The notes: a model not told the origin generated them from the sequence alone. Numbered from the stretch's first letter, positions 1 through 18,058 are shown. The stretch: DNA of 37,884 bases from Spirochaetales bacterium (GCA_018433865.1 JAHDQJ010000051.1:1-37884); one strand, 5' to 3'. Made by a program: numbers and translations.

Positions 1-1055
1 ACAGGGTCCCATTGTTTTATGAAGCGTATCCCGGCAGCATCGTGGATGTCTCACAGCTGCAGTATATGCTGGAGAAAGCCAAGAGCTACGGGTATCGTCG
101 CTGCGGCTTCATTCTCGACCGCGGGTACTTCTGCAAGTCGAATATCCAGTATATGGATTCCTGCGGCTATGAATTCATCATCATGGTCAAAGGCAAGAAA
201 CGGCTCGTCTCAGAACTTGTGCTGCAGCACAAGGGAAGTTTCGAGGTCGATCGCAGCTGTTTCATCAAGGGGCACAGGATCTACGGGAAGACCGTGAAGG
301 CGAAGCTGTTTGCCGATGATGAACATGGCCGGTATTTCCATCTCTTCCACTCCACAGCACTCCAGCATGCACAGAGAAGCTCCCTGGAGCTCGAACTTGA
401 AAAGATGGGAAAGATGCTTGAGAAGTACCGGATGAAGCCTGTGCAGCTTCCTGATGCGTACGAGCATTACTTTGAGCTCTATTACAATGAGCAGAACAAC
501 GTTCTTGTCCACTGGAAAGAGCGAGCCGATGTGATCCAGCAGGAGCTGTCTCTCTGCGGATACTTCTCCATTGTCACCTCAGAGAAGATGTCAGCCCAGG
601 ATGCCATGGACCTCTACAGGAGCAGGGATTCCTCTGAGAAACTCTTCAGGAGCGACAAGACGTTCCTTGGGAACAGAAGCCTCAGGACCTATTCGCAGCA
701 GTCGGCGGAGGCGAAGATCTTCATTGAGTTCGTGGCACTCATCATCCGCAATCGATTCTACACGCTGCTCAAGGATGAGACGGAACGCATGGACGAGCGT
801 CCGAACTATATGACTGTTCCTGCCGCATTGAAGGAATTGGACAAAATCGAGATGGTGAGGCAATATGATGGGGTGTATCGACTCGATCATGCGGTAACGA
901 AGACCCAGAAGACGATTCTGAAAGCTTTTGGGCTGGACAGTGATGCTGTTCACACTACAGCTGTGACCATCAGCGAAACTCTTGGTGGCAAGACTGGAGC
1001 TGCACAATCCGGAGGGAGAAAACATGGCAAGAACCAAGACAATGGCCTCTATTGA
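1..1055 (+). CDS. IS1634-type DDE transposase, 5'-truncated by window edge
   Basis: This is the C-terminal part of a cut-and-paste transposase. The reading frame is open from position 3, so the gene begins upstream of the window and the TTG at 12 is not a real start. The frame contains FYEAYPGS, then ILDRGYF, which fits the second catalytic Asp region of the IS4/IS1634 superfamily. Later it contains YRSRDSSEKLF, which matches the YREK signature (Y-x2-R-x3-E-x-K) that carries the catalytic Glu. About 350 codons are visible, and IS1634-family enzymes usually have 500 to 600. The last 32 bases overlap the start of the small gene at 1024. Terminal inverted repeats could not be verified because the left end is outside the window. 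The right end of the element must lie before about 1290, where S24 homology resumes. Confidence 0.85.
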   Translation, partial: RVPLFYEAYPGSIVDVSQLQYMLEKAKSYGYRRCGFILDRGYFCKSNIQYMDSCGYEFIIMVKGKKRLVSELVLQHKGSFEVDRSCFIKGHRIYGKTVKAKLFADDEHGRYFHLFHSTALQHAQRSSLELELEKMGKMLEKYRMKPVQLPDAYEHYFELYYNEQNNVLVHWKERADVIQQELSLCGYFSIVTSEKMSAQDAMDLYRSRDSSEKLFRSDKTFLGNRSLRTYSQQSAEAKIFIEFVALIIRNRFYTLLKDETERMDERPNYMTVPAALKELDKIEMVRQYDGVYRLDHAVTKTQKTILKAFGLDSDAVHTTAVTISETLGGKTGAAQSGGRKHGKNQDNGLY

Positions 1056-1498: not shown

Positions 1499-2638
1499 TC
1501 ACTGATATTGCAGTATTTTTTGATGTATATCACAAATTGCACCCACAATATCTTCTACATCCTTTTCGCTATTGAACCTACCATATGAAATTCGAATAGC
1601 CGACTTCGCTTGTTGTTCTGTTTGGCCTAAAGCCATCAGAACATGCGAAGGGTGAACTGTTCCAGAAGCACACGCCGAACCAGTAGAAACACAAATACCT
1701 TTCAAGTCCAATAAATGCATGAGTGATTCACCTGATATCCCGTTAAAACCTAAATTTAAAATCCCTGGAAGGCAATTCTCCAAATCGCCATTTACCCTCA
1801 CATTAGGAATCTTGCTCCTAACACCTTCAAGTGTCAGAGCTATCATACTTTTCAAGCGTTTAGTCGTAGAAACCATTTCGTACAAATTTTCCTCTAAAGC
1901 AAACCCAGCACTGATGATTCCGGCAATGTTCTCTGTCCCAGCTCGTAATCCAAATTCTTGTTCCCCTCCATATAGCATTGGGGAAATATTCAAATCTTTT
2001 CGCCTATAAAGAAATCCAATACCTTTCGATCCATTAAATTTATGAGCCGAGGCAGTAAGGAAATCAACCATGAGATGATTTAAATTTAAAGGAATATGTC
2101 CAACCGCCTGAACGGCATCTGTATGAAAAAGGATGTTCTTCACTCTAAGAAAATTCCCAATCTCCGCTATTGGTTGAATAGTGCCAATTTCATTATTCGC
2201 AAAAATAATTGAAACAAGTCTTGTGTTTGGTTTGATAGCAGACGCAATTCTCTCAACAGATAGTTTCCCAGTACAATCAACCGGTAGATATGTTACTTCA
2301 ACACCTTTCTTTTCAAGCTCTTTGCAGGTACTTAAAACTGAATGGTGTTCGATTGCAGAAGTAATGATATGTATTGTACTATTTGAAAATTTCTCAACTA
2401 CGTCTCTAATAACCCAATTATTTGCTTCTGTGGCACCAGAAGTGAAAGTAATTTCCTCTGGGACGACTCCAATTCCGTCTGCAATTCTTTTCCTTGATTC
2501 CTCTAATGCTTTTTTTGCCTGCATCCCAAATGAATATTGAGAAGAAGCATTCCCATACTGGTCACGCAGGTAGGGAAGCATTTTCCTAACAATGCTATCT
2601 GGTATCATTGTTGTTGCTGCGTTATCAGCATAAATCAT
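1499..2638 (-). CDS. Cysteine desulfurase, IscS/DndA/SspA-like
   Basis: A 379-residue PLP enzyme that removes sulfur from cysteine and carries it as a persulfide. Visible features are YADNAATT at the N-terminus, the EHHS histidine near residue 98, HTDAVQ at 172-177, the PLP lysine in SAHK (K200), and the persulfide cysteine in GSACASG (C323). The length is full for the family. The start at 2638 is supported by CGGAG about 8 bases upstream. It is the last gene of the BREX-like operon, 12 bases after the CxxC gene. In Dnd and Ssp phosphorothioation systems a linked desulfurase (DndA/SspA) feeds the PAPS-reductase-like protein (DndC/SspD). Here it is therefore likely to supply sulfur to the BrxP-like protein at 10794-13124. 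A housekeeping role in Fe-S assembly is the alternative, but no isc/suf partner is adjacent. Confidence 0.88.
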   Translation of the reverse strand: MIYADNAATTMIPDSIVRKMLPYLRDQYGNASSQYSFGMQAKKALEESRKRIADGIGVVPEEITFTSGATEANNWVIRDVVEKFSNSTIHIITSAIEHHSVLSTCKELEKKGVEVTYLPVDCTGKLSVERIASAIKPNTRLVSIIFANNEIGTIQPIAEIGNFLRVKNILFHTDAVQAVGHIPLNLNHLMVDFLTASAHKFNGSKGIGFLYRRKDLNISPMLYGGEQEFGLRAGTENIAGIISAGFALEENLYEMVSTTKRLKSMIALTLEGVRSKIPNVRVNGDLENCLPGILNLGFNGISGESLMHLLDLKGICVSTGSACASGTVHPSHVLMALGQTEQQAKSAIRISYGRFNSEKDVEDIVGAICDIHQKILQYQ

Positions 2639-2650
2639 ATTATTACTCCG

Positions 2651-2857
2651 TTAGAAATAAACACAACCTTGGCTCTTAAAATCTTCAATTTTCATTATTA
2701 AAAATTCTGTGTCGACTTCTAAAAATTTTGCAAGACATTCAAGGCAATAAAAATGAGAGGTTTCCTCATTTAATAATTTTCGTGTTAGTCCTATCTCATT
2801 CTTCGACAACGATTCTTTTCCACAGAGATAACAATTAATCATATAAACAATCAGCAT
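2651..2857 (-). CDS. Small CxxC zinc-ribbon-like protein between brxL and desulfurase
   Basis: A 68-residue protein with two CxxC knuckles (C9-C12 and C38-C41) and an additional Cys at 65, a pattern expected of a zinc ribbon or a small Fe-S/sulfur-handling protein. The first possible start (2857) lies 3 bases after the brxL stop. The second Met, at 2842, gives a 63-residue protein starting MINCYLCGKE and is equally plausible because AAAGG sits about 15 bases before it. It lies in the same operon as the desulfurase, 12 bases upstream of it. I do not recognise the family. The position suggests an adaptor for the desulfurase, or a DNA-binding or sulfur-relay accessory; that is inference. Confidence 0.65.
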   Translation of the reverse strand: MLIVYMINCYLCGKESLSKNEIGLTRKLLNEETSHFYCLECLAKFLEVDTEFLIMKIEDFKSQGCVYF

Positions 2858-2860
2858 CCT

Positions 2861-4339
2861 TTACTCTGTTTCAGTATTAATTCTGAATGCTGGAAGATCT
2901 TTGCCAAGATATTCCACGTCCAAGATGCCCAATTGATACTTGATAGTATCTCTCATTCTTCTAGCTCTACTTAGGCAGTATCTATTAAACTCTCGTCCAG
3001 TAATATCTTCAGCTTTGCGAACGTGTGGAAAAATTAGCTTCAAATATGCAGTAGCAATACGTTTCACCGCTTCAGTATCTCGTGTATCGGCCGCCTCAGG
3101 GACTTCAATAAGCTGATCAACAATGGCGCGATAACTCATATCATTTCGCAAATCGTGTAAAATTGAACAAAAATATTCGGAATTCAATGCCCATCCTGCT
3201 ATTTTCAGATCATCATTCATCCTAGGGATATTCCATCCTTTAATGAACCCATGGAAACGTTCAATCAGTGCTGACTCATGGAAGACTGTTGGTAGTTCTT
3301 CAAACATACTGGCAAAACCATCTTCATCCATAATTGCTTTCTTAATATTACCACAAAGGATTACACCAGCTTCGGCAGTTCCTTCATAATTCCCAACTGT
3401 GAATATTCCAGATTCAAGATACCCTTTTAAAGCAGCTCTCATTTCGTTCACATCTGTGAATGAAATCGTTTGTACTTCATCAAGAGTGATAAAGTCGTTT
3501 CCTGAAACAAGACCTTCAGCCCGTTTATTTTGGTCATAAAACATTTTTGCGCGGCTCATGACTCCACCACTTGAGAGCCATCCAAAGCGGCTAACACGCC
3601 CGAATAAATAGGATTTACCGGTTCCTTTTGGTGCTAATTCAATAAGATTAAGTCTCTTTTCAACAAAGGGAAGTAATCGTGTTAGCATTGTAAGTTTTTT
3701 CTCTTCGTCCCCGAGATACCCATTTGCATTATAATCTACTGCACCTAAAAGTATATCAATCCATTCTTCTGTAGAGAATGCACGACGAGCATCTTTGTAA
3801 TAGTCTAAATCAATAGTATAGGGACAGAAAGTTTTAAAAGCTGTTAACTTAATTTTGCCTCTAAAGAGTCCCTTGCTTCTACTCTTCGATAAATCATTTT
3901 CATTATTGTCAGGTTGACGATATCCAATTTCAACCATACCCCAAGTCTCGCGTCCTCTAACTAGTTCTTCTTTACAGTTCTGCCATATATGGTCCTCAAT
4001 AATTGTATCCTTATTTGTCAGTCCAAAATCTGGTAATGCAAAGGATACAACACCTGAACTTATATCTATATCAACTGAGACTTTTGCTAAAAAACGAACT
4101 CTCTCATTCTCAACAACAACCTGATTCTTAATCGCAGTCCAGTCCTCTTTACGCGGTAAATATTTTTTTATAAAATCCACAAGCTCGTCTTGATTAAAGG
4201 AACCATTTTCATCTTCAAATTTTTTTAAAAGCCAATCGCGCATAAATGAAGGAAGGCTCAGAGCAGAAAAGAAGTTGCTTTTCTTCAAATCCTTATATAC
4301 AACCATCTCATCAAAATAATTTTTGAGTTTCTCAATCAT
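2861..4339 (-). CDS. brxL: BrxL-like AAA+ ATPase, short form
   Basis: A 492-residue protein with the BrxL ATPase core: Walker A APKGTGKSY (about 236-244), then RFGWLSSGGVMSRA, then Walker B FITLDEVQ (D287, E288) and the sensor-like segment VILCGNIKK. The N-terminal 130 residues resemble the BrxL N-domain. Type 1 BrxL proteins are about 680 residues and carry a Lon-protease-like C-domain. Here the chain stops after a short helical region (about 380-492), so that domain is absent. The start at 4339 has AGAGGT 5 bases upstream. It lies 12 bases downstream of pglZ. BrxL forms a DNA-binding ring needed for BREX defence in studied systems. Its job in the type 4 arrangement is less well known. Confidence 0.82.
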   Translation of the reverse strand: MIEKLKNYFDEMVVYKDLKKSNFFSALSLPSFMRDWLLKKFEDENGSFNQDELVDFIKKYLPRKEDWTAIKNQVVVENERVRFLAKVSVDIDISSGVVSFALPDFGLTNKDTIIEDHIWQNCKEELVRGRETWGMVEIGYRQPDNNENDLSKSRSKGLFRGKIKLTAFKTFCPYTIDLDYYKDARRAFSTEEWIDILLGAVDYNANGYLGDEEKKLTMLTRLLPFVEKRLNLIELAPKGTGKSYLFGRVSRFGWLSSGGVMSRAKMFYDQNKRAEGLVSGNDFITLDEVQTISFTDVNEMRAALKGYLESGIFTVGNYEGTAEAGVILCGNIKKAIMDEDGFASMFEELPTVFHESALIERFHGFIKGWNIPRMNDDLKIAGWALNSEYFCSILHDLRNDMSYRAIVDQLIEVPEAADTRDTEAVKRIATAYLKLIFPHVRKAEDITGREFNRYCLSRARRMRDTIKYQLGILDVEYLGKDLPAFRINTETE

Positions 4340-4351
4340 CGAGTACCTCTC

Positions 4352-6628
4352 TTAGAATAACTCATCAAAATCTTCATTAACTCTTCCACTTCTTCCTTGC
4401 ATCTTAACGATTAGATGGTCAATATAGTTGTCACCTACATATACATCGATTTCGTAATCCCCTGCTCGTTTGACATCTGGCAATTTCACAAAAAAATGAT
4501 GCTTATCAATATACTGAGTTGCCATATACGACTTTTCTTTAAACATTATTAATACATTTGAAACGGGGTAATTAAAGAATAATTTGACTTCTGCTCCTTC
4601 ACGATAATCTACAGTAATGGTGTCATCAATCAATTCTACAATAATATTATCTTCTTTTAACTCAAGTTCAATTATTGGAACTATAACCTCTTCTAATGAA
4701 GCTCCACCGTGGACTTCAACATTTGCAGCACGACTTCCTTTGAACCTACCGTAATCAGCAAGAACTAGATAACCATTCTCTTCTGCTGCATATTTTAAAT
4801 TATAATTATAATCAGGATTATTTATTTTACAACAACGCCCAGAATGTTCTCCCTTTGTATCAGTCTCATACTTTTCTTCTTTTCGATTCAGAACTGCTAA
4901 TCGAGATGCACCGTGATCACTTGCTATAATAAAAAGTTTACACTGCTTTGATTTCAGTTTTGTAGCTGCGCTATCAATAATCCTTGAAATCACATCAATT
5001 TCTTTTACGAGATGAATTGGGAGTTCATTATCAATGAAATTATAACCGCCACTAGCTTTATGTTTTATCTCATCAAGATCATTATTCTTTTCTTTTCTAC
5101 CATTCCAATTGTCATAGAAATCACGATTCATTGAAGTTATTGTTGGCAAATCAGCACGAGCAATACTAACGTGTATCGAAAGCCCCTTCTTTTCTACTAA
5201 AGATTCAATAAGAGATAAATATTCAACACCAAGAGCATCTATCCAATATAAATATGCATCAGTTTTATCAATCTGATCGATAATTTGATTCCGAGTAGGC
5301 AACCGATTATATACTCGAGCTTGACATGCAAGATGTTCAACTGTTGTTAAAAAATTATCCTCTATTCGATTTAAAATTTTCTGCTTCTTATAATCATCAA
5401 AGTAATGAGTTAAAAGATCTGAAAGATCTGGACATTTAAAGATATATTTTTTTAAATATAAATTAAGAGATGGGTAGATATCCTTTATTTCTGGAATGAT
5501 TTCATGTTGCGAAATCCAGGCAAGAATCTCTTCTCTTTCGGTCTTAGTAACATCAGTCAATCTATAGATACTTTCTTCAATATTTTTTCGATTACTTACC
5601 ACAAAACCAGCAATATCTGATTCTGGAAACCGCTCAATTATTTTCTTTCTCTCTAGGTAAAAAGTTGGAAAAATTTTTTCAGTTATAGAAATTTTATTAA
5701 TAAAATTTAAAACATTTGAGATAATATCTTTAAAATTATTTGTGTTATTGATTACATGCCTAAGATAGGAATTCTGTACCGAATCAGTTTTATATTTTAA
5801 ATAAATATAATATAGCCAGCTACGGTAATCATTACCTACAATATTATTATAGAATTCGGATTCCATATTTTCCGTAATCTTTCTTTCTTTAAATACTGCT
5901 TCAATTTCGCCATTAAGACTATTCAGATCCTTTAATAATGCTGCCCAATCTTTGTCCTCTCCACAGGGTTTTTGTATTGAAAAATCCCTAGTCACGAGCT
6001 TCACACCCTCGTAAGCATCGTTTATTACCTTAACATTGAACAATGAACTTCTTAAATCAATTGAAGTGTTAACAATAATATTATCCGAACAGCCTTTCTC
6101 AAAGTTCCTCAAAATTGACTTAAATCCAATAATCTCTGAGAGTCCAATAGGAGTTGTAGTATATGTTATGGATAGATTACAATCAGCACTATCGATTACA
6201 CAATATCTAAGTTCGTCAAAACGCGGATCACTGTTAAGCTTCTCTATTTGGGTGGCTAGACCCCGTAATAGTAAGACTACTTTTGCATGACTGACATTAA
6301 GATCTTTAAATCTTAAAAGCTCACTCCAGGCTACATGTTGACCACGAATAGCCAGGTATTCCCCAAGTCCTATAATGATTACCTTTTTTCTTTTAATATC
6401 CCTTCTAGCAATATTAATTTGGGTAAACAAACTATCAATACTTGGGAATTTGTCATCTCCGCTACAAAAATCACTCATTCTGATAAAAGATACATCCATC
6501 ACAGTTAATTCATTAATAACATTTCTGTATTCGCGATCACTTACAAATAAAAAAAATGGTTTCTTTGTTGAAGAATCAAAATACCTTTTAACAGCGTTAC
6601 AGAGCATATTAGAATCCGCCTTTGTCAT
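4352..6628 (-). CDS. pglZ: PglZ, alkaline-phosphatase-superfamily BREX protein
   Basis: A 758-residue protein with a C-terminal PglZ domain from about residue 455. Metal-site signatures of the alkaline phosphatase fold are visible: YWIDALG (D464), LPTITSMN (Thr/Ser nucleophile region 496-499), SDHGASR (D571, H572) and VEVHGGASLEEV (H640). A beta-rich tail (660-758) follows. PglZ is the marker gene of all BREX systems. The first start, 6628, overlaps brxC by 20 bases. A downstream ATG at 6607, two bases after the brxC stop and preceded by AAAGGCGGA, would give a 751-residue protein and may be the true start. The gene is AT-rich like its neighbours. The operon context with BrxC, BrxL and a PAPS reductase points to BREX type 4. 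Confidence 0.92.
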   Translation of the reverse strand: MTKADSNMLCNAVKRYFDSSTKKPFFLFVSDREYRNVINELTVMDVSFIRMSDFCSGDDKFPSIDSLFTQINIARRDIKRKKVIIIGLGEYLAIRGQHVAWSELLRFKDLNVSHAKVVLLLRGLATQIEKLNSDPRFDELRYCVIDSADCNLSITYTTTPIGLSEIIGFKSILRNFEKGCSDNIIVNTSIDLRSSLFNVKVINDAYEGVKLVTRDFSIQKPCGEDKDWAALLKDLNSLNGEIEAVFKERKITENMESEFYNNIVGNDYRSWLYYIYLKYKTDSVQNSYLRHVINNTNNFKDIISNVLNFINKISITEKIFPTFYLERKKIIERFPESDIAGFVVSNRKNIEESIYRLTDVTKTEREEILAWISQHEIIPEIKDIYPSLNLYLKKYIFKCPDLSDLLTHYFDDYKKQKILNRIEDNFLTTVEHLACQARVYNRLPTRNQIIDQIDKTDAYLYWIDALGVEYLSLIESLVEKKGLSIHVSIARADLPTITSMNRDFYDNWNGRKEKNNDLDEIKHKASGGYNFIDNELPIHLVKEIDVISRIIDSAATKLKSKQCKLFIIASDHGASRLAVLNRKEEKYETDTKGEHSGRCCKINNPDYNYNLKYAAEENGYLVLADYGRFKGSRAANVEVHGGASLEEVIVPIIELELKEDNIIVELIDDTITVDYREGAEVKLFFNYPVSNVLIMFKEKSYMATQYIDKHHFFVKLPDVKRAGDYEIDVYVGDNYIDHLIVKMQGRSGRVNEDFDELF

Positions 6629-9600
6629 TTAGGATTTCGATGCCCACTGTAATATTATTCATGATAAGATTTGTAAGATACGTTTTTATTTCTGTTTCCG
6701 ATAGTTTTTCAATCTTTTCAACAACCTTATCAGATCCACCAGAGTTATACTCGGCTTCGGCTAGTTGCTGTATTCTAATTCTTACATTTGGATTGTCACG
6801 CCATTCGTAGACGCCAATTGGAATTTGGTCCAGATCATCCCTAACTCTGTCTATATCGGATAGTAGAAAGGAATAATTCCCAATTATTTCCCTCCTAAAG
6901 GCTTCATCACATTTTTCTTTATCATTTAGTACCTCAAATAGTGTTGTGGAGTTAAGAAATGCAAGTGCAGCCTTAATTTCTTCATCGGTACCATTACTAT
7001 TATTCAATACCTCGAAGGATTTTTTTGCAATTTCAAATTCTTTTACAGGAACACAACATAAAATTGGGGTCCTCTTTCGATTTGACCAATCATTCGGATT
7101 AGTCGTGTTTGTTTTTTCTTTCCAAAAATGACTGAGCTGCGATCTAAGTAAATTTTTGCGATATTCATTCGCAATATCTTTGACTTTTGAATTGCATTCT
7201 GTAATGCTTAACATAAAAAGGCCAATGGGAATCTGACTCATGATTTCAATAATTTCATCATCAGATAAACCTTCTAGATAAAGCTTGTAGACCTCCTTAA
7301 ATAAGATTTTATAATTTTCAAAAAGTTCTTTAACAACCAGGGAATGTGTTTCTAACTCAGAATTGAAGATTTTTAGCTTCTCGTGTAATAAATCTTCTCC
7401 GTTAAGAATTTTCTGGATGATATCAAAAATTTTATGCAAAACTGGATATTTATTTCTAAGTGAAGAATGAGAGATCCCAATGAATTTAAAGTGATTACGC
7501 CATTCGTCATATATCTCACTTAAAGAATGACTCGAAGTATTTAAAATATCATTGCTTAACTTAACAATATTGTATTTAATAAATAGCTTTTGGATCTCTT
7601 CTTCACCAATTTTTTTATCCCATAGACAAGAATATTCTACTGCAAATTGCTGACTTATATCCCCAAGTACATTATCTTGAGCTCCGATGGAAGAGGCAAC
7701 TTCATAGATTTTCCCGTTCTCAAAAGATCGAAGATAATTACTCATCCCTTCTTGGCAATTTTCCAGAGAGATTGATTTTGAAAGTATCTCCCCTAGAGAT
7801 GGATTCGCTAAAGCTAACCTTCCAATTTCCACTGCCTTTCTATGAGCTTCATTACCCTCTTTCTGCACCAATTCAATATATAGCTGGATTACTTCAAATT
7901 CCTCAATAGTAACAACATTTTCCAGACACCATACTGGTAACCCCAATTTTCTCATCTCATTTGATACAGCAGAACCAGCTTTTCCCGCAGAAGAACAGGA
8001 ATTAGTCGGTATCCCCCAAGCATTTTCTGTTAGAGTGTAAAAAGCCATTTCTTCAGCAGTCATTTTGACTAAATAAGTTGGTTTAGGTTTTGGTGTTTTA
8101 GAAATATAATTACCAATCATCTCAGCAAGTTTGTCAGGTGTCATTTGTTCATGACCGCCAGAAGTGTCTGTATATCGGTATTGCTCATTGCCATACTCTT
8201 TAAGCAAGAAACCAATAATGAACGCTGAAAGATTAGAAGGTGCAAACCCATATTCATCCTGGAGAAAATCATAAATTTCTCCTATCGAAATTTGCCCTTC
8301 CTCAGAAAAAGATTTTTGGATAAGTTTCTCTATATCCAATTTTATTTTAGAAATAGGTAAATTTGTAGTTGCATCTTTTATCCAATAATTATCAGTATTC
8401 CAAACGGACGATAAAATAATATTTTCAACACCTTTTATTAATCCTGAGGTTATTTGGGTAATGCCAGATTTGGCGGATTGCTTAACATTCGGAGTTGACT
8501 TTAACTGACTTTCTGTTAGGTTTCGTGCAAAGTCGAATACATACGGAAACTTTGTCGTTACCAAGGTTTGAAGAACACTTCCCACCCCTTGCCCAGTACT
8601 CACTTTTATACCTTCTTGATTAGAATATGTATAAATAATCACAGGCCCATTATAGATTTTATTTTTCCAATCTTGGTTTAGAATATGCTTTGCTTTATCA
8701 GCATTTTCTCTTGAAGACAAATTATTATTGCCTTGGTAGTACATAGCCATTGCAGTATAATCAACATATTGTTCAAAGAGATCAAAACCGAGAGGAGCGG
8801 ACAGGGCATCAATAATAACAATATCCTTGTATTGTTCATTCTTTACAGCTGCTACCAAGCTTCTTCGAAACGCTGTGGCCTCTGAATCATCCTTTGCAAA
8901 AGCAATAATGGCATGAAACTTCCATCCATTGGGTTTATCCCGTAATGAATTAATAATTCTTGTAAAATCATTAGAAGTTACAGGTGTAATTGTGCCTGCA
9001 CCTAGGTCTGAATCAAATCTTAATCGCAACGCAGGGGAAAGCGATAATACAGATGATAGTTCCCCTTCATTCACCAATTTTGACGTTGTGGTATTTTTCC
9101 TAAGCTCCTTTTTATAACTATCAATTTTTACTTGATCCCCAGCAAGAACGGCAACTGTATAAGCAGAGCGTCCTCCGCTCAATGGAGTTGATACTAAAAC
9201 ACCTTTATTCTTAAGCCCTTTTGCAATATTTTTGCAAGAAACATCTAATCCAGACGAAATTCCAGCAAATACATAGCTTATATTTTGTTCCGTTGCCTTT
9301 AATAAATCAATAACTCCTCCTAATCGTAGATCAATTGCTTGCATTATTAATATTGCTTTTAGAACAGCAGCTTCGTCTTCACGTAAATTTTTCTGCTGTT
9401 GAAAAGTATCAAGAACCAAACGAATCTCTGATGAGAGATTGTTTTTCCCCTTTTCATAAAAGAAGTCCCAAAGCATATCAACAGTGAGGACTGGATGATC
9501 ATCAAATGGTCCAACCTTATCAATAAACCATTGAAAAGCCTTCACATCTTCTGTACTTGAAGTCTTAATGAAATCGAACATACTGCGTTGGTTTGATTTA

Positions 9601-10781
9601 AAAGCTTGTGCAATATTTTTTAATAATAATGCGGTCATGGGATGAATAGGCAGAATATTTTTCAGCACACGTTCATTAGTGATACTTGTTGCTTGCATCA
9701 CTTCCTTTCGCGCAATGCTTGTCTGTGATCCTAGATCGCCATCCACTAAAGTATCCCATGTCTGTTTTGCTGCAGGTTTTATATTAAAAGCATGCCCAAG
9801 CAAATCGAAAGCAATATTATCTGGTAATACTATTGAGATAGGCACAAAACGATCACTAACTTTTGACTGATTGCCTCTATCATTATCTGATACATAGATT
9901 TGTTGGGGCTCATGAGTAACGACTATGAAATAAAAAGGTTTGTTCTGAACAAGAGAGGCGATTTTCTGGAACTCAGAAAGGCTTTCACGATTATTTCTAA
10001 AGTAATCAGAAAATTCATCCCAAATTAAAACAATGCTGATGTTATTATGATCAATGATATCAGTTAGCCAGTTAATCAGCCTATCAGAATCGATCGACAA
10101 GGCAGTAATTCCTTCTTCATCTGCAAGAGTGAAGATATTATCAACCAGAGATTTAACCTCACTATCGTATTTAAGAGCAGCTAATATTTCATCAACATTG
10201 GATTGGGAAAACAAAGCTTTCCATTTCTTCTTAGAGTTATTTAAAAAACTGTTAACCATTAATTGATGGTCAACATCTTCTAACCAGGCAATGATACTTG
10301 CTTTTAAAGTGTTTTCGCCAAGATATGCAACTTTCTTTGATATTAGAGCTTCCCTAACACTTTCTTGTATTGCGAAGAATAAGTCTCTAGCTGACATTAT
10401 TCCCCCTGAAGCATACCGATGAGCTACAACAATACCTTTTTGTTTATGACCAATAAGTTTCTGTAAGAGATCACCTTTTGACTTCAAAGGCTCATACAGG
10501 TCCCAATAGGCACGAAGCTCGTCTTCAGGAACCTCTAGAATTTTTCGTAACGCATAGGCACATTGCGACTTCCCGGTTCCATATGCGCCTTCAATCCAGA
10601 GGGTTTTCCCATTGTTCTGCCTTGCTAGCGCACGTTCCATTTGATTTAACATGTCAATGAATGTAGTGTGTGGGTAAGTATTTTTCCAAGGTGCACCAGC
10701 CTCGATTGCAGCAGCATCAATGCAAGGAAAATATCTATCATCTATATCAAAATATTCTCGATATTTAGCATTAGTTGACAT
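6609..10781 (-). CDS. brxC: BrxC, giant P-loop ATPase of BREX
   Basis: A 1390-residue ATPase. Walker A GAYGTGKS occupies 65-72 and Walker B VLIWDEF carries D255 and E256. The rest is a long chain of helical and ATPase-like segments without other motifs I can name. The size and the N-terminal P-loop with WDEF fit the BrxC/PglY family, which is present with PglZ in BREX loci. The start at 10781 has AGGAG 9 bases upstream. It is 12 bases downstream of the PAPS-reductase-like gene and overlaps pglZ at its 3' end. In studied BREX systems BrxC is required for both modification and phage exclusion and is thought to act as a large DNA-associated motor. That role is transferred from the family and not seen here. 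Confidence 0.9.
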   Translation of the reverse strand: MSTNAKYREYFDIDDRYFPCIDAAAIEAGAPWKNTYPHTTFIDMLNQMERALARQNNGKTLWIEGAYGTGKSQCAYALRKILEVPEDELRAYWDLYEPLKSKGDLLQKLIGHKQKGIVVAHRYASGGIMSARDLFFAIQESVREALISKKVAYLGENTLKASIIAWLEDVDHQLMVNSFLNNSKKKWKALFSQSNVDEILAALKYDSEVKSLVDNIFTLADEEGITALSIDSDRLINWLTDIIDHNNISIVLIWDEFSDYFRNNRESLSEFQKIASLVQNKPFYFIVVTHEPQQIYVSDNDRGNQSKVSDRFVPISIVLPDNIAFDLLGHAFNIKPAAKQTWDTLVDGDLGSQTSIARKEVMQATSITNERVLKNILPIHPMTALLLKNIAQAFKSNQRSMFDFIKTSSTEDVKAFQWFIDKVGPFDDHPVLTVDMLWDFFYEKGKNNLSSEIRLVLDTFQQQKNLREDEAAVLKAILIMQAIDLRLGGVIDLLKATEQNISYVFAGISSGLDVSCKNIAKGLKNKGVLVSTPLSGGRSAYTVAVLAGDQVKIDSYKKELRKNTTTSKLVNEGELSSVLSLSPALRLRFDSDLGAGTITPVTSNDFTRIINSLRDKPNGWKFHAIIAFAKDDSEATAFRRSLVAAVKNEQYKDIVIIDALSAPLGFDLFEQYVDYTAMAMYYQGNNNLSSRENADKAKHILNQDWKNKIYNGPVIIYTYSNQEGIKVSTGQGVGSVLQTLVTTKFPYVFDFARNLTESQLKSTPNVKQSAKSGITQITSGLIKGVENIILSSVWNTDNYWIKDATTNLPISKIKLDIEKLIQKSFSEEGQISIGEIYDFLQDEYGFAPSNLSAFIIGFLLKEYGNEQYRYTDTSGGHEQMTPDKLAEMIGNYISKTPKPKPTYLVKMTAEEMAFYTLTENAWGIPTNSCSSAGKAGSAVSNEMRKLGLPVWCLENVVTIEEFEVIQLYIELVQKEGNEAHRKAVEIGRLALANPSLGEILSKSISLENCQEGMSNYLRSFENGKIYEVASSIGAQDNVLGDISQQFAVEYSCLWDKKIGEEEIQKLFIKYNIVKLSNDILNTSSHSLSEIYDEWRNHFKFIGISHSSLRNKYPVLHKIFDIIQKILNGEDLLHEKLKIFNSELETHSLVVKELFENYKILFKEVYKLYLEGLSDDEIIEIMSQIPIGLFMLSITECNSKVKDIANEYRKNLLRSQLSHFWKEKTNTTNPNDWSNRKRTPILCCVPVKEFEIAKKSFEVLNNSNGTDEEIKAALAFLNSTTLFEVLNDKEKCDEAFRREIIGNYSFLLSDIDRVRDDLDQIPIGVYEWRDNPNVRIRIQQLAEAEYNSGGSDKVVEKIEKLSETEIKTYLTNLIMNNITVGIEILNDKGGF

Positions 10782-10793
10782 TTGTCGTATCTC

Positions 10794-13124
10794 CTAAAAT
10801 TGTAAGAGCACATCTTTCGAAGACTTATCCTCTGCCAGTGTTATTTTATCGAGGTCATAAGTGAACGACACAACGATATAATCAGGATATTTTGCTGACA
10901 ATCCTAACAAGATGGGGATGATTTCATTTCGCTCAAGACCAAATATTCTCGATGGACTTATACCATCTCGATCGATATCGTCATTTAGAAGGGTTGTGAG
11001 AGTAAATTCCTTGTGATTGTTACAATCTTCTGCAAATTTAAATAAACCATATAATAGGACAAGCGGGTTGCTTACTACACATTTAGTTCGAACGAAATAT
11101 TCTTCTTCAGTAACATACCCCCAATGGAGACTAGTTCCCAGTGGAGTTTCAACTAGTCGCTTGAATGATTTTACGATAGATTTTGCATCTTTAGGTTTAA
11201 CTTCAACAGCTACAAGCATATCTTCTACGCTTTTTCTCGCATAGTTAATACCAATTTCAAAATTTTTCACAAACCACTCAACTTGAGGATTCTCAGAAAC
11301 AAGGTTTACAAGTATTAACCCCTGAGCCGTTTCAGTTTCCCAGCCAATTCTTGAAATAAGTTCTGCAAAGGAAGTAAAGTGATTTTTTTCATTGAGATGA
11401 GCATCTTTAAGGAATCTTCTAAACATGTCATACATCATCGGACCAAGCGTATGTTCCGTAAAAAAAGCTTCCTTAAGCTCAAAAAATGAGCGCAACCATT
11501 CTGTTTTTGGCGCATGATCGGCGAATGAGTTAAGACTTTTCATTGTGTTTCCTCCCCCTTGTGGATGACGTAATGAATGAAATATTAAACAACCACTATC
11601 AATTTCAAGACATTGGTGACATCGAACACAGTTCCTAATTTTAACTTTTCCATTTGTAAAACTGATACAGCCGTACTTGCAGTTAGATTCACACACCCGA
11701 CAACCCTTACAGTATGCTGCTTTCCTAAATACTTTGCGGATTAATTTCCTCAATAAAGGTTTCTCTTTGAATATTGTGTCTGGAATTCTTACTACATATC
11801 CATTCTTAGTATTTTTAATAGAGAACTTAATCGGTTCATTATTGATGTCAACTGAATAATCACCATCCTTTCCATGTAAATCACCAATTGTCTTAATCCA
11901 TTCCATCCAATCTGAATCTGGATTTATTACTGTAATAGTCAGGTATCCATTTGCTATTTTTTCCAAACAACGAAATGGTTTATCTACAATTTCTCTTCCA
12001 TTTTTCCTGGAATTCCATCCGCCATTAAGAATGTATGATTGGACGTATTCATCTTTTCGTTTATCATTGTCGTAGTTACACTTAATAATTTGTACAAATT
12101 TATCAATTTCATCTGGGTAGCTGCTCCTACGAAGGTAATCCCCAGATCCTCCCGACATCGGACAAAACAGACATCCTGCACGACTGTTCCCTTTTTTATA
12201 TGCCTCATTAATAAAGATATTTTTCGCAAAAATGTATAGCCATATTTCTGCAGAGGTCCATTCAAGAATCGAGTTATGACTGTATTGCCCCTTCTGTTTT
12301 ACGCTATAATTCTCGTATTTATATTTACTTCTTCCAATACTTTCATGTGCACGGACTCCGACAAAATCAAGCCCTATATAATTATTTTTGCCTGTGATTT
12401 CTCTTAGTTTTAAAGTCTGGGGAGTACTCTTATGTACTGAACAACACCAACGTAGAACACGAGAAGGAGGTCCAAACAACTCCCATGATTCTTCAGGTTT
12501 TAGATGCGAACTTCCAATATAAAATGGTATTTCCAATTTCGCACATTGCTGTTTGGTTCTATTAATTACTTCATAAGTATCTGGGAATTCCATGCCTGTA
12601 TCCCCAAAGACAACTATAAAACTACCTTTTGGCAGTGCTTTTTTTACGATTTCAAGTAATACACAACTATCTTTTCCACCAGAAAAAGCCACATGAAACG
12701 AATCTACTTTCTCTTTATATTTTGTATATATGTTCAATACTTTTTTTACTGTTGTTTGCTCAAGAATCTCAATCATTTCTCGATTTTCGTAAATCATTGC
12801 GGAAACATCGATTGGGCGAAGAGATATTCCCTTCGGTTCAGGTTCTATAGGTTTGCCATCTTCTCCCACAGGAATAATAATCTCAGGTGCAGTGTAGATA
12901 TTACCACCTTTAATTTTTGCAACAAGATCACCTCGATAATAATAATTATTTGCCTCAGCCCACATATAGGGAAGATCAACCTGATTGTCATATTTCCAAA
13001 TTTTATTAAAACCCAAATGGTCTAACTCTATCGCGTAAACTGGACGTGGTTCTTTTGAAAATCCTGTTGGGGAGGAATTAAGAAGTATTCCGCCAGTAAT
13101 TTTATCATAGGTGTAGGAATACAT
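10794..13124 (-). CDS. brxP: BrxP-like PAPS-reductase/DndC-type protein fused to ferredoxin-like and DUF4007-like regions
   Basis: A 776-residue protein with four visible parts. Residues 1-120 carry an N-terminal region of unknown type. Residues 140-390 are a PP-loop ATP pyrophosphatase domain: SGGKDS (148-153), FGDTGMEFP, RWCCSVHK (225-232) and GCLFCP (317-322). Residues 472-512 hold nine cysteines in ferredoxin-like spacing (CKGCRVC, CVRCHQC). From residue 528 a segment starting MKSLNSFADHAPKTEW resembles DUF4007 proteins found beside PAPS-reductase/Dnd genes. DndC and SspD use this PP-loop fold to activate the DNA backbone for sulfur insertion, so the protein is the likely modification enzyme of the system. 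The start at 13124 has AAAGGA 7 bases upstream. It lies 2 bases after the previous gene. Residue 528 also looks like an independent translation start (separate entry). Confidence 0.87.
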   Translation of the reverse strand: MYSYTYDKITGGILLNSSPTGFSKEPRPVYAIELDHLGFNKIWKYDNQVDLPYMWAEANNYYYRGDLVAKIKGGNIYTAPEIIIPVGEDGKPIEPEPKGISLRPIDVSAMIYENREMIEILEQTTVKKVLNIYTKYKEKVDSFHVAFSGGKDSCVLLEIVKKALPKGSFIVVFGDTGMEFPDTYEVINRTKQQCAKLEIPFYIGSSHLKPEESWELFGPPSRVLRWCCSVHKSTPQTLKLREITGKNNYIGLDFVGVRAHESIGRSKYKYENYSVKQKGQYSHNSILEWTSAEIWLYIFAKNIFINEAYKKGNSRAGCLFCPMSGGSGDYLRRSSYPDEIDKFVQIIKCNYDNDKRKDEYVQSYILNGGWNSRKNGREIVDKPFRCLEKIANGYLTITVINPDSDWMEWIKTIGDLHGKDGDYSVDINNEPIKFSIKNTKNGYVVRIPDTIFKEKPLLRKLIRKVFRKAAYCKGCRVCESNCKYGCISFTNGKVKIRNCVRCHQCLEIDSGCLIFHSLRHPQGGGNTMKSLNSFADHAPKTEWLRSFFELKEAFFTEHTLGPMMYDMFRRFLKDAHLNEKNHFTSFAELISRIGWETETAQGLILVNLVSENPQVEWFVKNFEIGINYARKSVEDMLVAVEVKPKDAKSIVKSFKRLVETPLGTSLHWGYVTEEEYFVRTKCVVSNPLVLLYGLFKFAEDCNNHKEFTLTTLLNDDIDRDGISPSRIFGLERNEIIPILLGLSAKYPDYIVVSFTYDLDKITLAEDKSSKDVLLQF
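11541..11560 (-). promoter_or_regulatory. Strong internal ribosome binding site and ATG within brxP
   Basis: Read on the minus strand, AAGGGGGAGG is followed by AAACACA and then ATG at 11543-11541. This is the strongest Shine-Dalgarno in the operon, yet it sits inside the open frame, where it encodes PQGGGN. The ATG is residue 528 and begins the DUF4007-like part. It could produce a separate 249-residue protein from the same mRNA, or be a relic of two genes that fused when an intervening stop was lost. Confidence 0.6.
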
Positions 13125-13126
13125 TA

Positions 13127-15271
13127 TTATCCTTTCCTTTCTATTACTATCTTTGCTTTAATCATTATTTGATTAATCCTATTCGTTGTTCTTCTTGATA
13201 TAAACCCAGCATCTTTTAGAAATTTGCCAATTTCATTTATCGACAAGGGAATGCCAGAACTTACTACAGCATCAACTAGAATTTCATTGTAATTCATTTC
13301 ACAACTCTTCCGGACAACTGCTCCAGAATTACTCAAGTTTAATGAAATTGAATCGAATCTAAAACTTCTACTAAAACGTCGACAATAACTCTCTAATAAG
13401 TATTGATTCCAGGGTTTTCCGCAATCAGGGAATGCTCCGAAAGTTATAAAAGTTTTTATTGCTGAATAATTCCCCTTTATAAATCTATCAATTGCTTTAT
13501 CAATCGCTTCTATATCAAAGCACAAATATTTATCTGCTATGAATGTGTTTTCATCAGTTCTCACCATTATTGAATTTCCCGCTTCAATGGGAATATAACG
13601 GTGGATTTCACCTGTAAGTTCTTCTTCATACTTTAATAAATCTTCAAGAGAAGTCATTTCTAATGTTCGACAATATTCTTTCATAATCGTTAAAGCATCC
13701 AACTCATCGCCCTTTTGAATTACAATTTTTCCTTTTTTATCAAATTTACTTGAAAGACAAACTTGAAAGGCTAGATTTTGGAGCGCTGATGCTGAGAGCT
13801 CAATGTAACGATTTCCAATCTCTTCTATAGGCAGCTTAGATATTGACACAAAACCATTTCTCCTACATTCCTGTTCGGCAGCATTTATAATTTCTTGTTT
13901 TTGATCAGCAGTAATTTCTACTCTGCTTATATGTGTAAAAGACTCAACACTATTCCAGATAAAATTTTCGTTCTGGCCAAGAGTATTCTTAATTCGTTCT
14001 ATAGGTAAATATTTTAACCTCGCACTCAATTCTTCATAAGTTAGTATTAAATTTTCTCCCCAAACTCGAAGAATTTCTTTTTCAACAATGGTATTGATAG
14101 AAGCAATAATTTTCCCAAAGAAATATTGTGTGAATCTATAATCAGGAAACATATCTTTAAATATTTCTATTAACATCTCTTCGGAAACTACATTTTCAGC
14201 AAACAGCCAGATTTCATTTACGTGGTAAAACTCAGAGTAAAAGATCGCTTGTGCTCCTTCATTAAAATATCCATCCACTGAATTCTTAATAAGCTCCTTA
14301 ACTTCATTAGAGAGAAGGTAAATCTTACTATCAAAAAGAATACCACTTTTCAAGATATGCTCTTTCAATACGCTCTCAGTAAAGCTTACCTCCATTTTAT
14401 ATTTATCCAGATAAAAATATTTAAAACGAGCCAACTCTATTGGAGAATCAAGTCTAAGCCCCTTTGAAAAATTCTCTTTTAAAACCTCTTTAAGATTTTC
14501 AACTTCCCTATTGTTGACTGTAGAAATTGAGGGTTGATTCAAAACAATATTATTTTCATTTGCAGCCTTATCCAAATTTTTATTATCAAATGAATCAAAG
14601 TTATTCTTATACCACCAAGCATCTCTGTAATTACTGCTTCTACCTCCTCCTTTTTTAAACCTAAAATGGAATCCCATATCATCAAGCTTATCCATCACAG
14701 AGGCCAGTTCTCTGCCTCCTAAAACCCATAAGACACCACCAGATTCACGTTTATCTACAACTTTTAACCTAAATTTATGAAGTAAGTTTATAACTTCTGC
14801 TTCTTCTGGACGCTTAAAGGTTGACATTTTAATATCTGAAGGTGTCCCTGATGCAAGACTATTCTCAGAATCTATGTTAACTGATTTCGACTTATTAAGA
14901 CTTTCTATTTTTTTTAAAAAACGCGAAAATACCACCCCCCCAATAATATATAATTTATGTGTATTATTTTTATAATCCCTATATATTTCTTTCCTCAATA
15001 TATAATTATATAATTCTATAAATTCATTCGGGTTGCTGTACAGCCACAGATTAACCTTCGAATAGTTCTTGCTTATAGCAAGTGAAGAGATATTATCAAC
15101 ACAAGCCACTAGTTCATCTATTGAGTACCGATTAATATATTCATTCGAAAACCAATTAGTAAATTTTTGCTTCCTATTGAATACAGAATCGGCAATATTT
15201 TGCACATCTGTATTTTTATAGTCTCTATTTTGAATGAATTCTCTATCCATACTAGTAACCTTTTTCATCAA
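13127..15271 (-). CDS. Uncharacterised 714-residue first gene of the BREX-like operon
   Basis: The frame begins with TTG at 15271 and ATG at 15268, but the ATG at 15250 (MDREFIQN) has AAAAAGG 8 bases upstream and is the better start, giving 707 residues. Near residues 155-222 there is a compact module with VVDKRESGGVLWVLGG followed by FRFKKGGGR and AWWYK. Modules of this kind (a VIDKR...ALWVIGG pattern ending in AWW) occur in other bacterial proteins of unknown function. The extreme C-terminus (about 665-714) reads like a winged helix with a basic recognition helix (RRTTNRINQ). The middle is helical and AT-rich, with no motif I recognise. It is followed after 2 bases by brxP. It is probably an accessory or DNA-recognition subunit of the system. 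I cannot assign a function. Confidence 0.75.
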   Translation of the reverse strand: MMKKVTSMDREFIQNRDYKNTDVQNIADSVFNRKQKFTNWFSNEYINRYSIDELVACVDNISSLAISKNYSKVNLWLYSNPNEFIELYNYILRKEIYRDYKNNTHKLYIIGGVVFSRFLKKIESLNKSKSVNIDSENSLASGTPSDIKMSTFKRPEEAEVINLLHKFRLKVVDKRESGGVLWVLGGRELASVMDKLDDMGFHFRFKKGGGRSSNYRDAWWYKNNFDSFDNKNLDKAANENNIVLNQPSISTVNNREVENLKEVLKENFSKGLRLDSPIELARFKYFYLDKYKMEVSFTESVLKEHILKSGILFDSKIYLLSNEVKELIKNSVDGYFNEGAQAIFYSEFYHVNEIWLFAENVVSEEMLIEIFKDMFPDYRFTQYFFGKIIASINTIVEKEILRVWGENLILTYEELSARLKYLPIERIKNTLGQNENFIWNSVESFTHISRVEITADQKQEIINAAEQECRRNGFVSISKLPIEEIGNRYIELSASALQNLAFQVCLSSKFDKKGKIVIQKGDELDALTIMKEYCRTLEMTSLEDLLKYEEELTGEIHRYIPIEAGNSIMVRTDENTFIADKYLCFDIEAIDKAIDRFIKGNYSAIKTFITFGAFPDCGKPWNQYLLESYCRRFSRSFRFDSISLNLSNSGAVVRKSCEMNYNEILVDAVVSSGIPLSINEIGKFLKDAGFISRRTTNRINQIMIKAKIVIERKG

Positions 15272-15973
15272 CTAACTTGAAAAATTTAAAAATTTTTATC
15301 ATATCAGATACCAAGATTGGAAGAATGGTCGTGCTTCCAACTATTGCTACATCATTTAATTTCATGGGGATGGTTACCATAAATCAATCAATTATTAACG
15401 TTAATATAATCAATAGCATTTTTCATAAACATTTATTTGCCTTTATCAGTATTTTTATAATAAGATCCATGAACATTGTATCATCCTCTGCTTTCAACGT
15501 AAAACATATTCTTTGAGATTAAACATCAAGAGACAGTCGGTATACATTTAGATATCGTAAGATAAAGTATAGCATTGTTATTCCTTTTCTGAATAAATCG
15601 CTGACTATTCTATTAGGAGTAGCTATCTTTATTAATTCGATTGAATTTTCATTAAAGATTTCTAACTTGAAACAAAATCCTCTTTGATCACAAAAGATCT
15701 CACGTGTATTGAACAGGAAAGGCTCAGGGATTTCCAACACTGAACATTCAAATATCCTATTTTATCCTTAGCGGACTCACTCCTTATAGAATCTCTAAAG
15801 AGACCTTTCGTCAGCTCGATCGGAATTCCAGATTGAGTAGACATTTTGTTCTACAAGACTTTCACGAATAATTACTCATAAAACCTTAAAATATTCCAGA
15901 TTCTAGAATGTCATGTTATTCTATCAAGGCGAGTGTTTCCCAATGCCCTATTTCTTTTTAAGGCTGTATTTGA
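15272..15973. other. AT-rich intergenic stretch between divergent defence genes
   Basis: About 700 bases separate the start of the leftward BREX-like operon from the rightward GIY-YIG gene. Short open frames on both strands lack ribosome sites and recognisable sequence. The promoter of the operon must lie near 15280-15400 on the minus strand, but I find no convincing -35/-10 pair. No repeat, tRNA or terminator is evident. Confidence 0.5.
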
Positions 15974-16834
15974 ATGAGAACTGAAAGATCAGATGTAGAA
16001 TTCCCTCTGTGGAGAAAGAAAGTCGACAAATCACTGTTCGACCATAACGGTACAACGGTGCCTTTCTGGGCATGCAAGATGTGGGATCTTCATACCATCT
16101 TCGAAGGGGTATCCTCAAAGAGCGATCCCCTGTCCAGGATTATGATTCATTTTAAGAATGAAGTATACCAAGGATGGGTTACCAATAATATCAAAGGACG
16201 TACCGTACCATTGATACGTCTATGGTATCCACAGGAGTTGACCTTCAAGATCAAGCACGCCTTCTTGATGAGTTACATGAGATCCCTTGAACAACGGCTC
16301 ACCACAAAAAAAGAAAATGATGTGGAGCTCGAAATTCCATTCTGGGAATTCCTTGATATCGAATTTGATTCACACAATAAGACGTTTGTGTTCGTTGCTT
16401 ATTACAAGCAGAAATCGAGTTTCCCAAATCTATTTGATCGTCTGATCGATTCCCCAGGTATGAAACGAATCGATGATGAATTACGGGGTAAGGAGAATGG
16501 AAGAATCCATAAACAAGATTGGAAACCCCGGGCAGAAGTCCAGTTGGAGATCGGAGCAAAGAATGTTATCTACTATCTCATAGATACACATAATCAACTA
16601 TTGTATATAGGGGAAGCAAAGGATCTTGTTTCTAGGTTGCTGCAATCTCATCCTTCAATTCCACATTGGGACTATTTTAGATACAACGTCCTACATAAGG
16701 AAATCGAGAAAGAACGGGTAACCTTGGAACGCATGATAATCAGGGATTTCGCCAGTTTCTTGAGTAACAAGAAGGATATCTCCTGGTTTAACATCTCAGG
16801 CTTTAAGCTCGCCAATGATAAGATCGATATCTAG
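15974..16834 (+). CDS. GIY-YIG superfamily nuclease, stand-alone
   Basis: A 286-residue protein whose C-terminal third is a GIY-YIG domain: VIYYLID (198-204) and LLYIGEAKDLVSRL (209-222, with the catalytic-type Arg at 221). HWDYFRY (231-237) follows, then LERMII, with Glu252 in the position of the metal-binding Glu. The first 190 residues form an uncharacterised domain with WYPQELT and IPFWEFLD. Members of this superfamily include restriction enzymes (Eco29kI type), homing endonucleases and repair nucleases. No methyltransferase is adjacent. The gene lies divergently from the BREX-like operon and could be its effector or an independent defence nuclease. The start at 15974 has AAGG about 11 bases upstream. 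Its GC content is intermediate between island and prophage. Confidence 0.8.
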   Translation: MRTERSDVEFPLWRKKVDKSLFDHNGTTVPFWACKMWDLHTIFEGVSSKSDPLSRIMIHFKNEVYQGWVTNNIKGRTVPLIRLWYPQELTFKIKHAFLMSYMRSLEQRLTTKKENDVELEIPFWEFLDIEFDSHNKTFVFVAYYKQKSSFPNLFDRLIDSPGMKRIDDELRGKENGRIHKQDWKPRAEVQLEIGAKNVIYYLIDTHNQLLYIGEAKDLVSRLLQSHPSIPHWDYFRYNVLHKEIEKERVTLERMIIRDFASFLSNKKDISWFNISGFKLANDKIDI

Positions 16835-17037
16835 AAAAGGATCTAGTCTCGTAACCTATACGGGGATCTGAATCTTTAAATATCATACCGTATAATTATA
16901 AATCCACTTATAGAATAACGTATCCCATGAATGTCTATTTAATTTCTAGTCAAAATCACTAATTCCCATGATTACATCTTGAAGCATTTTTCGGTTGTTA
17001 AGCGTATATCCAATAGATCAAACCAAGGAGGTAATAC

Positions 17038-17214
17038 GTGCAATTTGAATATCATCTGATATTATCAATTGAAAACACAAATAATCGTGAGGCAATACTA
17101 AATAGATTTGGAGTAAGCGAATTTTTACAATTCTGTATAATAAATGAGATTTTCGAGGAAGGTATGAAAGTCTTTGTAAAAAGATATTTTCTTCTTAAAC
17201 CAATCAAGGATTAA
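17038..17214 (+). CDS. Small 58-codon GTG-start gene with strong ribosome site
   Basis: A 58-residue frame starting at GTG 17038, preceded by AAGGAGG with 6 bases spacing, one of the best Shine-Dalgarno sequences in the window. The protein begins MQFEYHLILSIENTNN and ends with a basic tail (VKRYFLLKPIKD). The layout beta-strand, NNREAILNRFGVSEF helix, strand resembles a small alpha/beta protein. No family is recognised. A potential hairpin region follows 43 bases after the stop. It could be a small regulator or part of a toxin-antitoxin or defence unit; the function is unknown. Confidence 0.5.
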   Translation: MQFEYHLILSIENTNNREAILNRFGVSEFLQFCIINEIFEEGMKVFVKRYFLLKPIKD

Positions 17215-17256
17215 GAAGACCTAACCAAATAAAATTGTTATTGGAAAACCAAAAAA

Positions 17257-18012: not shown

Positions 18013-18058
18013 TCACCTTCCACGGCAGTTTCATCCAAGGCTATCGGTATACGTCTGA

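What the first reader, a model, noticed from the sequence alone, without database searches (positions are those of the whole stretch)
1499..15271. BREX type 4-like operon with its own cysteine desulfurase and no methyltransferase
PglZ, BrxC, short BrxL and a PP-loop PAPS-reductase-like protein with Fe-S-type cysteines are encoded in one operon. A full-length cysteine desulfurase and a CxxC protein close it. Other BREX types mark self DNA with a PglX methyltransferase, and none is present here. In Dnd/Ssp systems a desulfurase and a PAPS-reductase homologue insert sulfur into the DNA backbone. The operon therefore looks like a hybrid in which BREX machinery uses a sulfur mark, with its sulfur donor built in.
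Basis: partly seen in the sequence, partly recalled or inferred. Interest (0 to 1): 0.85.

Follow-up and report, generated by a model that had tools for sequence, protein, structure and literature searches.

The report
BREX-4 operon with overlooked modular subunit

Summary
Observation confirmed. Seven intact co-directional genes fill 1499-15271(-): an unnamed head gene ("HD"), BrxP (PAPS-reductase/Fe-S/DUF4007), BrxC, PglZ, BrxL, a 68-aa CxxC protein and a DndA/NifS-type cysteine desulfurase. No methyltransferase. The reading "BREX with a sulfur mark" fits, but is already published: brxPCZL (BREX type 4) is counted among phosphorothioate synthesis families (PMC11931770), and the desulfurase plus small zinc-finger gene were reported in 2026 (PMC12839542). 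What neither text names is HD (13127-15271). In 80 loci found through BrxP alone, HD lies beside brxP in 71 of 72 testable ones; the zinc finger is in 54/54, the desulfurase in 44/54. HD has a conserved C-terminal array of about six winged helices (AF2 pLDDT ~95) behind an N-terminus of 0-900 aa built from swappable modules. These resemble known DNA readers: a SeqA-like fold (Z 9.3), integrase SAM-like, HARE-HTH, and in this window an integrase-like plus a ZorC "EH" module. HD is the fastest-evolving component; N-termini are nearly always unrelated even when BrxP is 80-90% identical. Ssp loci and two divergent BREX-4 loci lack it. Best guess: HD is the DNA-reading subunit of this BREX-4 clade. 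Undemonstrated.

The parts
13127..15271 (-). Head gene 'HD' (714 aa, working name): modular N-terminus plus winged-helix array; apparently undescribed
   Evidence: beside brxP in 71/72 testable BREX-4 loci; no Pfam/NCBIfam/PDB-sequence family as a whole
14912..15166 (-). HD residues 36-120: family A module (integrase SAM-like family)
   Evidence: profile built without the window finds it, i-E 1e-15 with Z=1000; family members match Phage_int_SAM
14648..14872 (-). HD residues 134-208: EH-signature module as at the C-terminus of ZorC
   Evidence: three PADLOC ZorC models, best E 5.5e-8
13130..14512 (-). HD residues 254-714: conserved array of about six winged helices
   Evidence: AlphaFold2 pLDDT mostly above 90; Foldseek to tandem winged-helix proteins; profile without window, E 3e-166
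10794..13124 (-). brxP: PAPS-reductase-like PP-loop domain, ferredoxin-like cysteines, DUF4007 region
   Evidence: PADLOC BrxP 861 bits; invariant SGGKDS and 13 cysteines in 70 homologues
11589..11711 (-). BrxP residues 472-512: eight invariant cysteines, ferredoxin-like
6609..10781 (-). brxC: P-loop ATPase, long form (1390 aa)
   Evidence: PADLOC BrxC 1879 bits
4352..6628 (-). pglZ, type 4
   Evidence: NCBIfam NF033445 546 bits, cut-off 140
2861..4339 (-). brxL, short form without C-terminal extension
   Evidence: PADLOC BrxL 755 bits; BrxL_N and BrxL_ATPase Pfam domains
2651..2857 (-). 68-aa protein with two CxxC pairs (C9/C12, C38/C41) and C65
   Evidence: all five cysteines invariant in 59 homologues; present in 54/54 testable loci
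1499..2638 (-). cysteine desulfurase, DndA/NifS type
   Evidence: PADLOC DndA 453 bits; present in 44/54 testable loci

Best explanation
The operon is an intact BREX type 4 phage-defence system. The desulfurase and BrxP (with BrxC) place a phosphorothioate mark on host DNA; PglZ, BrxL and BrxC act against DNA that is not properly marked (about 0.93 that it is BREX-4 of the published kind; the chemistry is inferred from published work on the family, not shown here). Its head gene encodes an apparently undescribed subunit characteristic of one BREX-4 clade. The conserved winged-helix array docks on the BREX core (inferred) and the exchangeable N-terminal modules read DNA, by sequence or by modification state, so that they help decide which DNA the complex marks or attacks (about 0.45 for DNA reading as the role). 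Shown: gene order, near-universal linkage in the clade, modular N-terminus, fast evolution, predicted folds. Inferred: DNA binding, docking and direction of action.
For: Family matches for all core genes. HD beside brxP in 71/72 testable loci found without using HD; HD-only searches land next to brxP in 3/3 genomes and 3/3 viral contigs. Winged-helix array. N-terminal modules resemble DNA readers: SeqA fold Z 9.3 with next hit 5.4 and profile P 9e-4 above 100 of 100 shuffles, integrase SAM-like, HARE-HTH, ZorC EH module. Module strings differ between operons with 80-90% identical BrxP, and HD is the least conserved component, while BrxP's DUF4007 is conserved. Type 1 BREX reads its site with the methyltransferase (PMC11842806), which BREX-4 lacks.
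Against: Ssp loci and two divergent BREX-4 loci have no HD, so sulfur marking as such does not need it. Several HD proteins have almost no N-terminal extension. The array is acidic, median pI 5.3, which does not suggest general DNA binding by the array. SeqA similarity is weak at sequence level (HHalign probability 22.6%; PDB sequence search did not list it) and the window's own HD has no SeqA-like module.
Confidence: 0.45

Rival explanations
1. HD is a phage sensor rather than a site-specificity factor: its N-terminal modules recognise phage DNA structures or phage proteins and trigger PglZ/BrxL, while BrxP's DUF4007 alone sets the phosphorothioate motif.
For: Fast module turnover is also what an arms race with phages would give; Ssp systems lack HD yet are site-specific in the literature; variable N-terminal sensory modules are described for other defence proteins such as Shedu (PMC12839542).
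Against: The recognisable modules are DNA-reader-like rather than protein-binding; HD is encoded next to and often overlapping brxP, the modification gene, not pglZ or brxL.
Confidence: 0.3
2. HD is mainly a scaffold or assembly factor, or an operon regulator: the winged-helix array holds BrxP and BrxC together and the N-terminal modules only tune stability or expression.
For: The array is acidic and its best structural match is the protein-binding UFL1/DDRGK1 array; some HD proteins have no N-terminal modules; a Cro/C1 HTH is fused to HD in L056.
Against: Tight coupling to brxP and module diversity exceed what an autoregulator needs; where a Cro/C1-type regulator is present it is usually a separate upstream gene.
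Confidence: 0.22
3. The sulfur goes elsewhere: BrxP and the desulfurase modify a base, RNA or protein, or only build Fe-S clusters, and there is no phosphorothioate.
For: BrxP is far from DndC (23.5 bits against cut-off 290) and has an extra eight-cysteine set.
Against: Papers read here state that BREX type 4 (brxPCZL) makes phosphorothioates (PMC11931770; PMC12839542); invariant SGGKDS loop and APS-reductase-type cysteines.
Confidence: 0.05

Closest known systems
BREX type 4 (brxP-brxC-pglZ-brxL; PMC12839542; Yuan et al. 2024 preprint, cited there as ref 23)
   Same: All four core genes, their order, short BrxL, BrxP with ferredoxin-like cysteines and DUF4007 region, no methyltransferase, plus the desulfurase and small zinc-finger gene reported in 2026
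   Different: The readable main text names no head gene; here HD precedes brxP and carries variable modules
Ssp phosphorothioate systems (SspABCD)
   Same: Homologous desulfurase, PAPS-reductase, DUF4007 and ATPase
   Different: Ssp loci seen here have separate DUF4007, no PglZ or BrxL by profile, and no HD
Dnd phosphorothioate systems (DndABCDE)
   Same: DndA-type desulfurase and PP-loop PAPS-reductase-like enzyme
   Different: BrxP is far below the DndC cut-off; no Dnd B, D or E match among the seven products
SeqA C-terminal DNA-binding domain
   Same: Fold of HD module C in relatives (Z 9.3 over 96 residues); Asn in 15 of 19 modules at the column aligned to SeqA Asn150
   Different: Very low sequence identity; function untested; module C is absent from the window's own HD
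ZorC of Zorya
   Same: A 75-aa C-terminal EH module is shared with HD of this window
   Different: The rest of the protein and the system are unrelated

Membership tests
BREX type 4 | type 4 PglZ | tested here: met
   NF033445 546 bits, cut-off 140
BREX type 4 | BrxC, BrxL and BrxP in the same operon | tested here: met
   PADLOC 1879, 755 and 861 bits, contiguous on the minus strand
BREX type 4 | no PglX-type methyltransferase in the operon | tested here: met
   genome hits lie on other contigs
BREX type 4 | phosphorothioate in host DNA | not testable with these tools
   needs LC-MS/MS or iodine-cleavage sequencing
BREX-4 clade with HD (proposed here) | HD upstream of brxP, long BrxC (~1390 aa), small zinc-finger gene | tested here: met
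   Window and 71/72 testable loci with BrxP close to the query (identities listed 47-75%); HD and zinc finger absent in L131 and L147
Ssp (SspABCD) | separate SspB/DUF4007 and SspD genes, no PglZ/BrxL | tested here: not met
   DUF4007 is fused in BrxP and PglZ/BrxL are present
Dnd | DndC above curated cut-off | tested here: not met
   TIGR03183 23.5 bits against 290.4
SeqA family (for HD module C of relatives) | SeqA fold and sequence similarity | tested here: inconclusive
   Fold Z 9.3; profile P 9e-4, HHalign probability 22.6%; not listed in PDB sequence search
ZorC EH-signature module (for HD residues 134-208) | match to the C-terminal EH part of ZorC models | tested here: met
   three ZorC models, E 5.5e-8 to 2.3e-6, all ending at the models' C-termini

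The most novel reading that the evidence does not exclude
One large clade of BREX type 4 carries a previously undescribed, near-universal specificity subunit: a winged-helix docking array with a rapidly exchanged string of DNA-reading modules (some with the fold of SeqA, a reader of hemimethylated DNA). It takes over the target-recognition role that the PglX methyltransferase plays in other BREX types and lets the same sulfur-marking machine be re-aimed by domain swapping.
Probability: 0.33. Interest if true: 0.8.

Novelty: new variant of a known kind. Interest (0 to 1): 0.52.

Why it matters
The sulfur-marking BREX itself is already described. What is open is how BREX-4, which lacks the methyltransferase that recognises target sites in type 1 BREX (PMC11842806), chooses its DNA. 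HD is encoded beside brxP in nearly every close relative, evolves fastest and looks like an exchangeable DNA reader, so it makes that question directly testable with knock-outs and module swaps. It also means that reconstitution limited to brxPCZL could be missing a subunit of this clade.

Tried and rejected
Sequence search of PDB with HD and with its alignment: no hits. Foldseek of the whole HD model against viral structures: nothing convincing. Foldseek of the N-terminal model: no hit under E 0.2; only the VIA second look raised SeqA. PDB sequence searches with modules A, C and D: no convincing hit. tblastn of HD on plasmids: none. A viral-contig scan with module C was not possible, too little being conserved. 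Distant BrxP hits in the phylum and on a Treponema plasmid (L132-L137) look like Ssp loci, not BREX-4. A nuclease role for HD was considered and dropped: the invariant residues (D591, W621, S634, G650) form no nuclease motif that I recognise and the model is winged helices. The Cro/C1 HTH fused in L056 was first counted as a reader module, but it also occurs as a separate gene upstream of HD in nine loci, so it is more likely a regulator. No RNA family or tRNA in the window; promoter and terminator scans did not exceed shuffles. Yuan et al. and Goldfarb 2015 are not held and supplements of PMC12839542 could not be read, so an earlier mention of HD cannot be excluded.

Full report
Observation. 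The window (contig C54 of a 2.9-Mb genome; a genome of the same phylum, G008, has a 32,418-base contig with the same operon coordinates as a record titled Spirochaetota bacterium) carries seven intact, co-directional genes on the minus strand at 1499-15271. From the 5' end: HD (714 aa), BrxP, BrxC, PglZ, short BrxL, a 68-aa CxxC protein and a cysteine desulfurase. Family searches are unambiguous: BrxP 861 bits, BrxC 1879 bits, BrxL 755 bits, and type 4 PglZ at 546 bits against a cut-off of 140. No methyltransferase is in the operon; whole-genome searches with two methyltransferase families hit other contigs only.

Is it known? Yes, in outline. PMC12839542 (NAR 2026) states that type 4 BREX replaces the methyltransferase with a PAPS-reductase for phosphorothioation. 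[quoted passage not shown] PMC11931770 lists brxPCZL (BREX type 4) as one of three phosphorothioate-synthesis gene families, citing Yuan et al. 2024, which is not held. The 'hybrid' is therefore a standard BREX-4. The desulfurase is common but not obligatory: it is in 44 of 54 loci with enough downstream sequence, whereas the zinc-finger gene is in 54 of 54. Four other desulfurase-like genes exist in this genome.

BrxP detail. In 70 homologues the PP-loop SGGKDS and 13 cysteines are invariant: C194, C227-C228...C318-x2-C321, which is the CC...CxxC arrangement of [4Fe-4S] APS reductases (pattern from general knowledge; the only PDB sequence hit is an APS reductase), and eight cysteines at 472-512, ferredoxin-like. 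The 2026 paper notes the ferredoxin-like region and the lack of a DndC-specific cysteine dyad; the APS-reductase-like set is a complementary observation.

The head gene. HD has no Pfam, NCBIfam or PDB-sequence match as a whole. It was sought in 80 loci that had been fetched through BrxP only (the best 80 of 224 relatives, listed identities 47-75%). Of 72 loci with at least 1.4 kb upstream of brxP, 71 carry HD beside it, mostly with a gap of -4 to +6 bp; the exception, L124, has an unrelated gene on the opposite strand there. The reverse test also holds: HD-only searches of 296 genomes of the phylum gave three hits and of a viral collection three, all next to brxP. A faecal 'Bacteriophage sp.' scaffold carries the complete seven-gene set. 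HD is absent from the Ssp-like loci and from two divergent BREX-4 loci with shorter or broken BrxC frames, which also lack the zinc finger and desulfurase (L131, L147). HD thus marks one BREX-4 clade, not all of BREX-4.

Anatomy of HD. Residues 254-714 are conserved in length (about 460 aa) in nearly all relatives. AlphaFold2 models them with pLDDT mostly above 90 as a chain of about six winged helices (the count is my reading of the secondary structure). Best structural hits are tandem winged-helix proteins such as UFL1/DDRGK1 and SelB and single winged helices. D591, W621, S634 and G650 are invariant in 62 sequences. In front lies an extension of 1 to 910 aa (median 222) made of recombining modules. 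Family A is helical; some members match phage-integrase SAM-like domains (best 4.6e-5). Family C is alpha+beta, family D helical and first in the chain wherever present. Rarer ones include HARE-HTH (L098), DUF7662 (L108) and, in the window, an EH-signature module shared with ZorC. The window's HD is A + EH + array; a profile built without it still finds its A module. A second model, of a D-A-C N-terminus (L103, pLDDT 86), gave one clear structural match: module C against SeqA bound to DNA (Z 8.9-9.3, rmsd 2.4, 96-97 residues, next hit Z 5.4). A sequence-profile comparison with E. coli SeqA aligned the same region colinearly with P 9e-4, above all 100 shuffles, though HHalign probability is only 22.6% and the comparison was chosen after the structural hit. 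The column aligned to SeqA Asn150, which from memory lies in the loop that reads hemimethylated GATC, is Asn in 15 of 19 modules.

Evolution. HD is the least conserved component: at BrxP identity 0.7-0.8 the means are BrxL 0.84, zinc finger 0.71, BrxC and desulfurase 0.67, PglZ 0.58, HD array 0.50. N-termini turn over faster still: among 18 pairs with BrxP 80-90% identical, mean N-terminal identity is 0.01 (some of these have little or no N-terminus). Within the array the last winged helix is the most conserved part. BrxP's DUF4007 region, the other candidate DNA reader, is conserved (0.77 in pairs at 0.7-0.9).

Mechanism. Best supported: desulfurase and BrxP supply sulfur, BrxP/BrxC/DUF4007 install phosphorothioate, PglZ/BrxL/BrxC restrict (from published work on the family). 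HD docks by its array (inferred) and its modules read DNA sequence or modification state, directing marking or attack (inferred). In type 1 BREX target recognition resides in the methyltransferase (PMC11842806), which BREX-4 lacks, so a separate reader would fill a real gap. Against this, Ssp and divergent BREX-4 loci lack HD, some HD proteins have almost no N-terminal extension, and the array is acidic. A sensor role or a scaffold role therefore remain serious rivals.

Limits. The survey covers BREX-4 with BrxP close to the query; the divergent group is represented by two loci only. Many loci come from metagenome-assembled genomes. HD start codons were taken as the first start in frame and may be too early. 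Novelty of HD rests on the main texts that could be read and on the family libraries; supplements and two key papers were not readable.

Noticed in passing
L120 (Selenomonadaceae bacterium RGIG4933), 8602-17923: Operon HD-brxP-brxC-zinc finger-desulfurase with no pglZ or brxL match: a natural 'modification half' that would fit PglZ/BrxL being the restriction half. Could be a deletion or a metagenome assembly error.
   Followed up: no
L109 2-2311 and L096 7475-10001: The first half of the HD array is duplicated in tandem in these Thermoguttaceae loci; in L096 the frame is also broken in two.
   Followed up: no
Upstream of HD in L055, L068, L080, L088, L091, L093, L094, L101, L103; fused to HD in L056: A small Cro/C1-type HTH gene precedes or overlaps the start of HD, probably a regulator of the operon.
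   Followed up: partly
window 10794-13124 (BrxP): Invariant CC...CxxC cysteines as in [4Fe-4S] APS reductases, in addition to the ferredoxin-like eight-cysteine set.
   Followed up: partly
window 12-1055 (+): DDE transposase open reading frame at the contig edge, next to the 3' end of the operon.
   Followed up: no
window 15974-16834 (+): Protein with a weak C-terminal GIY-YIG match, divergent from the operon.
   Followed up: no
window 17611-31247: Phage-like block: HTH regulators, M78 metallopeptidase with zinc ribbons, family A DNA polymerase, D5-like primase-helicase, SNF2-type helicase, and a long ankyrin-repeat protein.
   Followed up: no
L125 (MT835511.1), L126, L127, L128: BREX-4 genes with HD on contigs labelled viral; L125 also carries genes that look bacterial, so at least that label may be wrong.
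   Followed up: partly
L131 (Methanosphaera plasmid pNP174) and L147 (MT835963.1): A divergent BREX-4 form without HD, zinc finger or desulfurase; BrxC is about 1190 aa in L131.
   Followed up: partly
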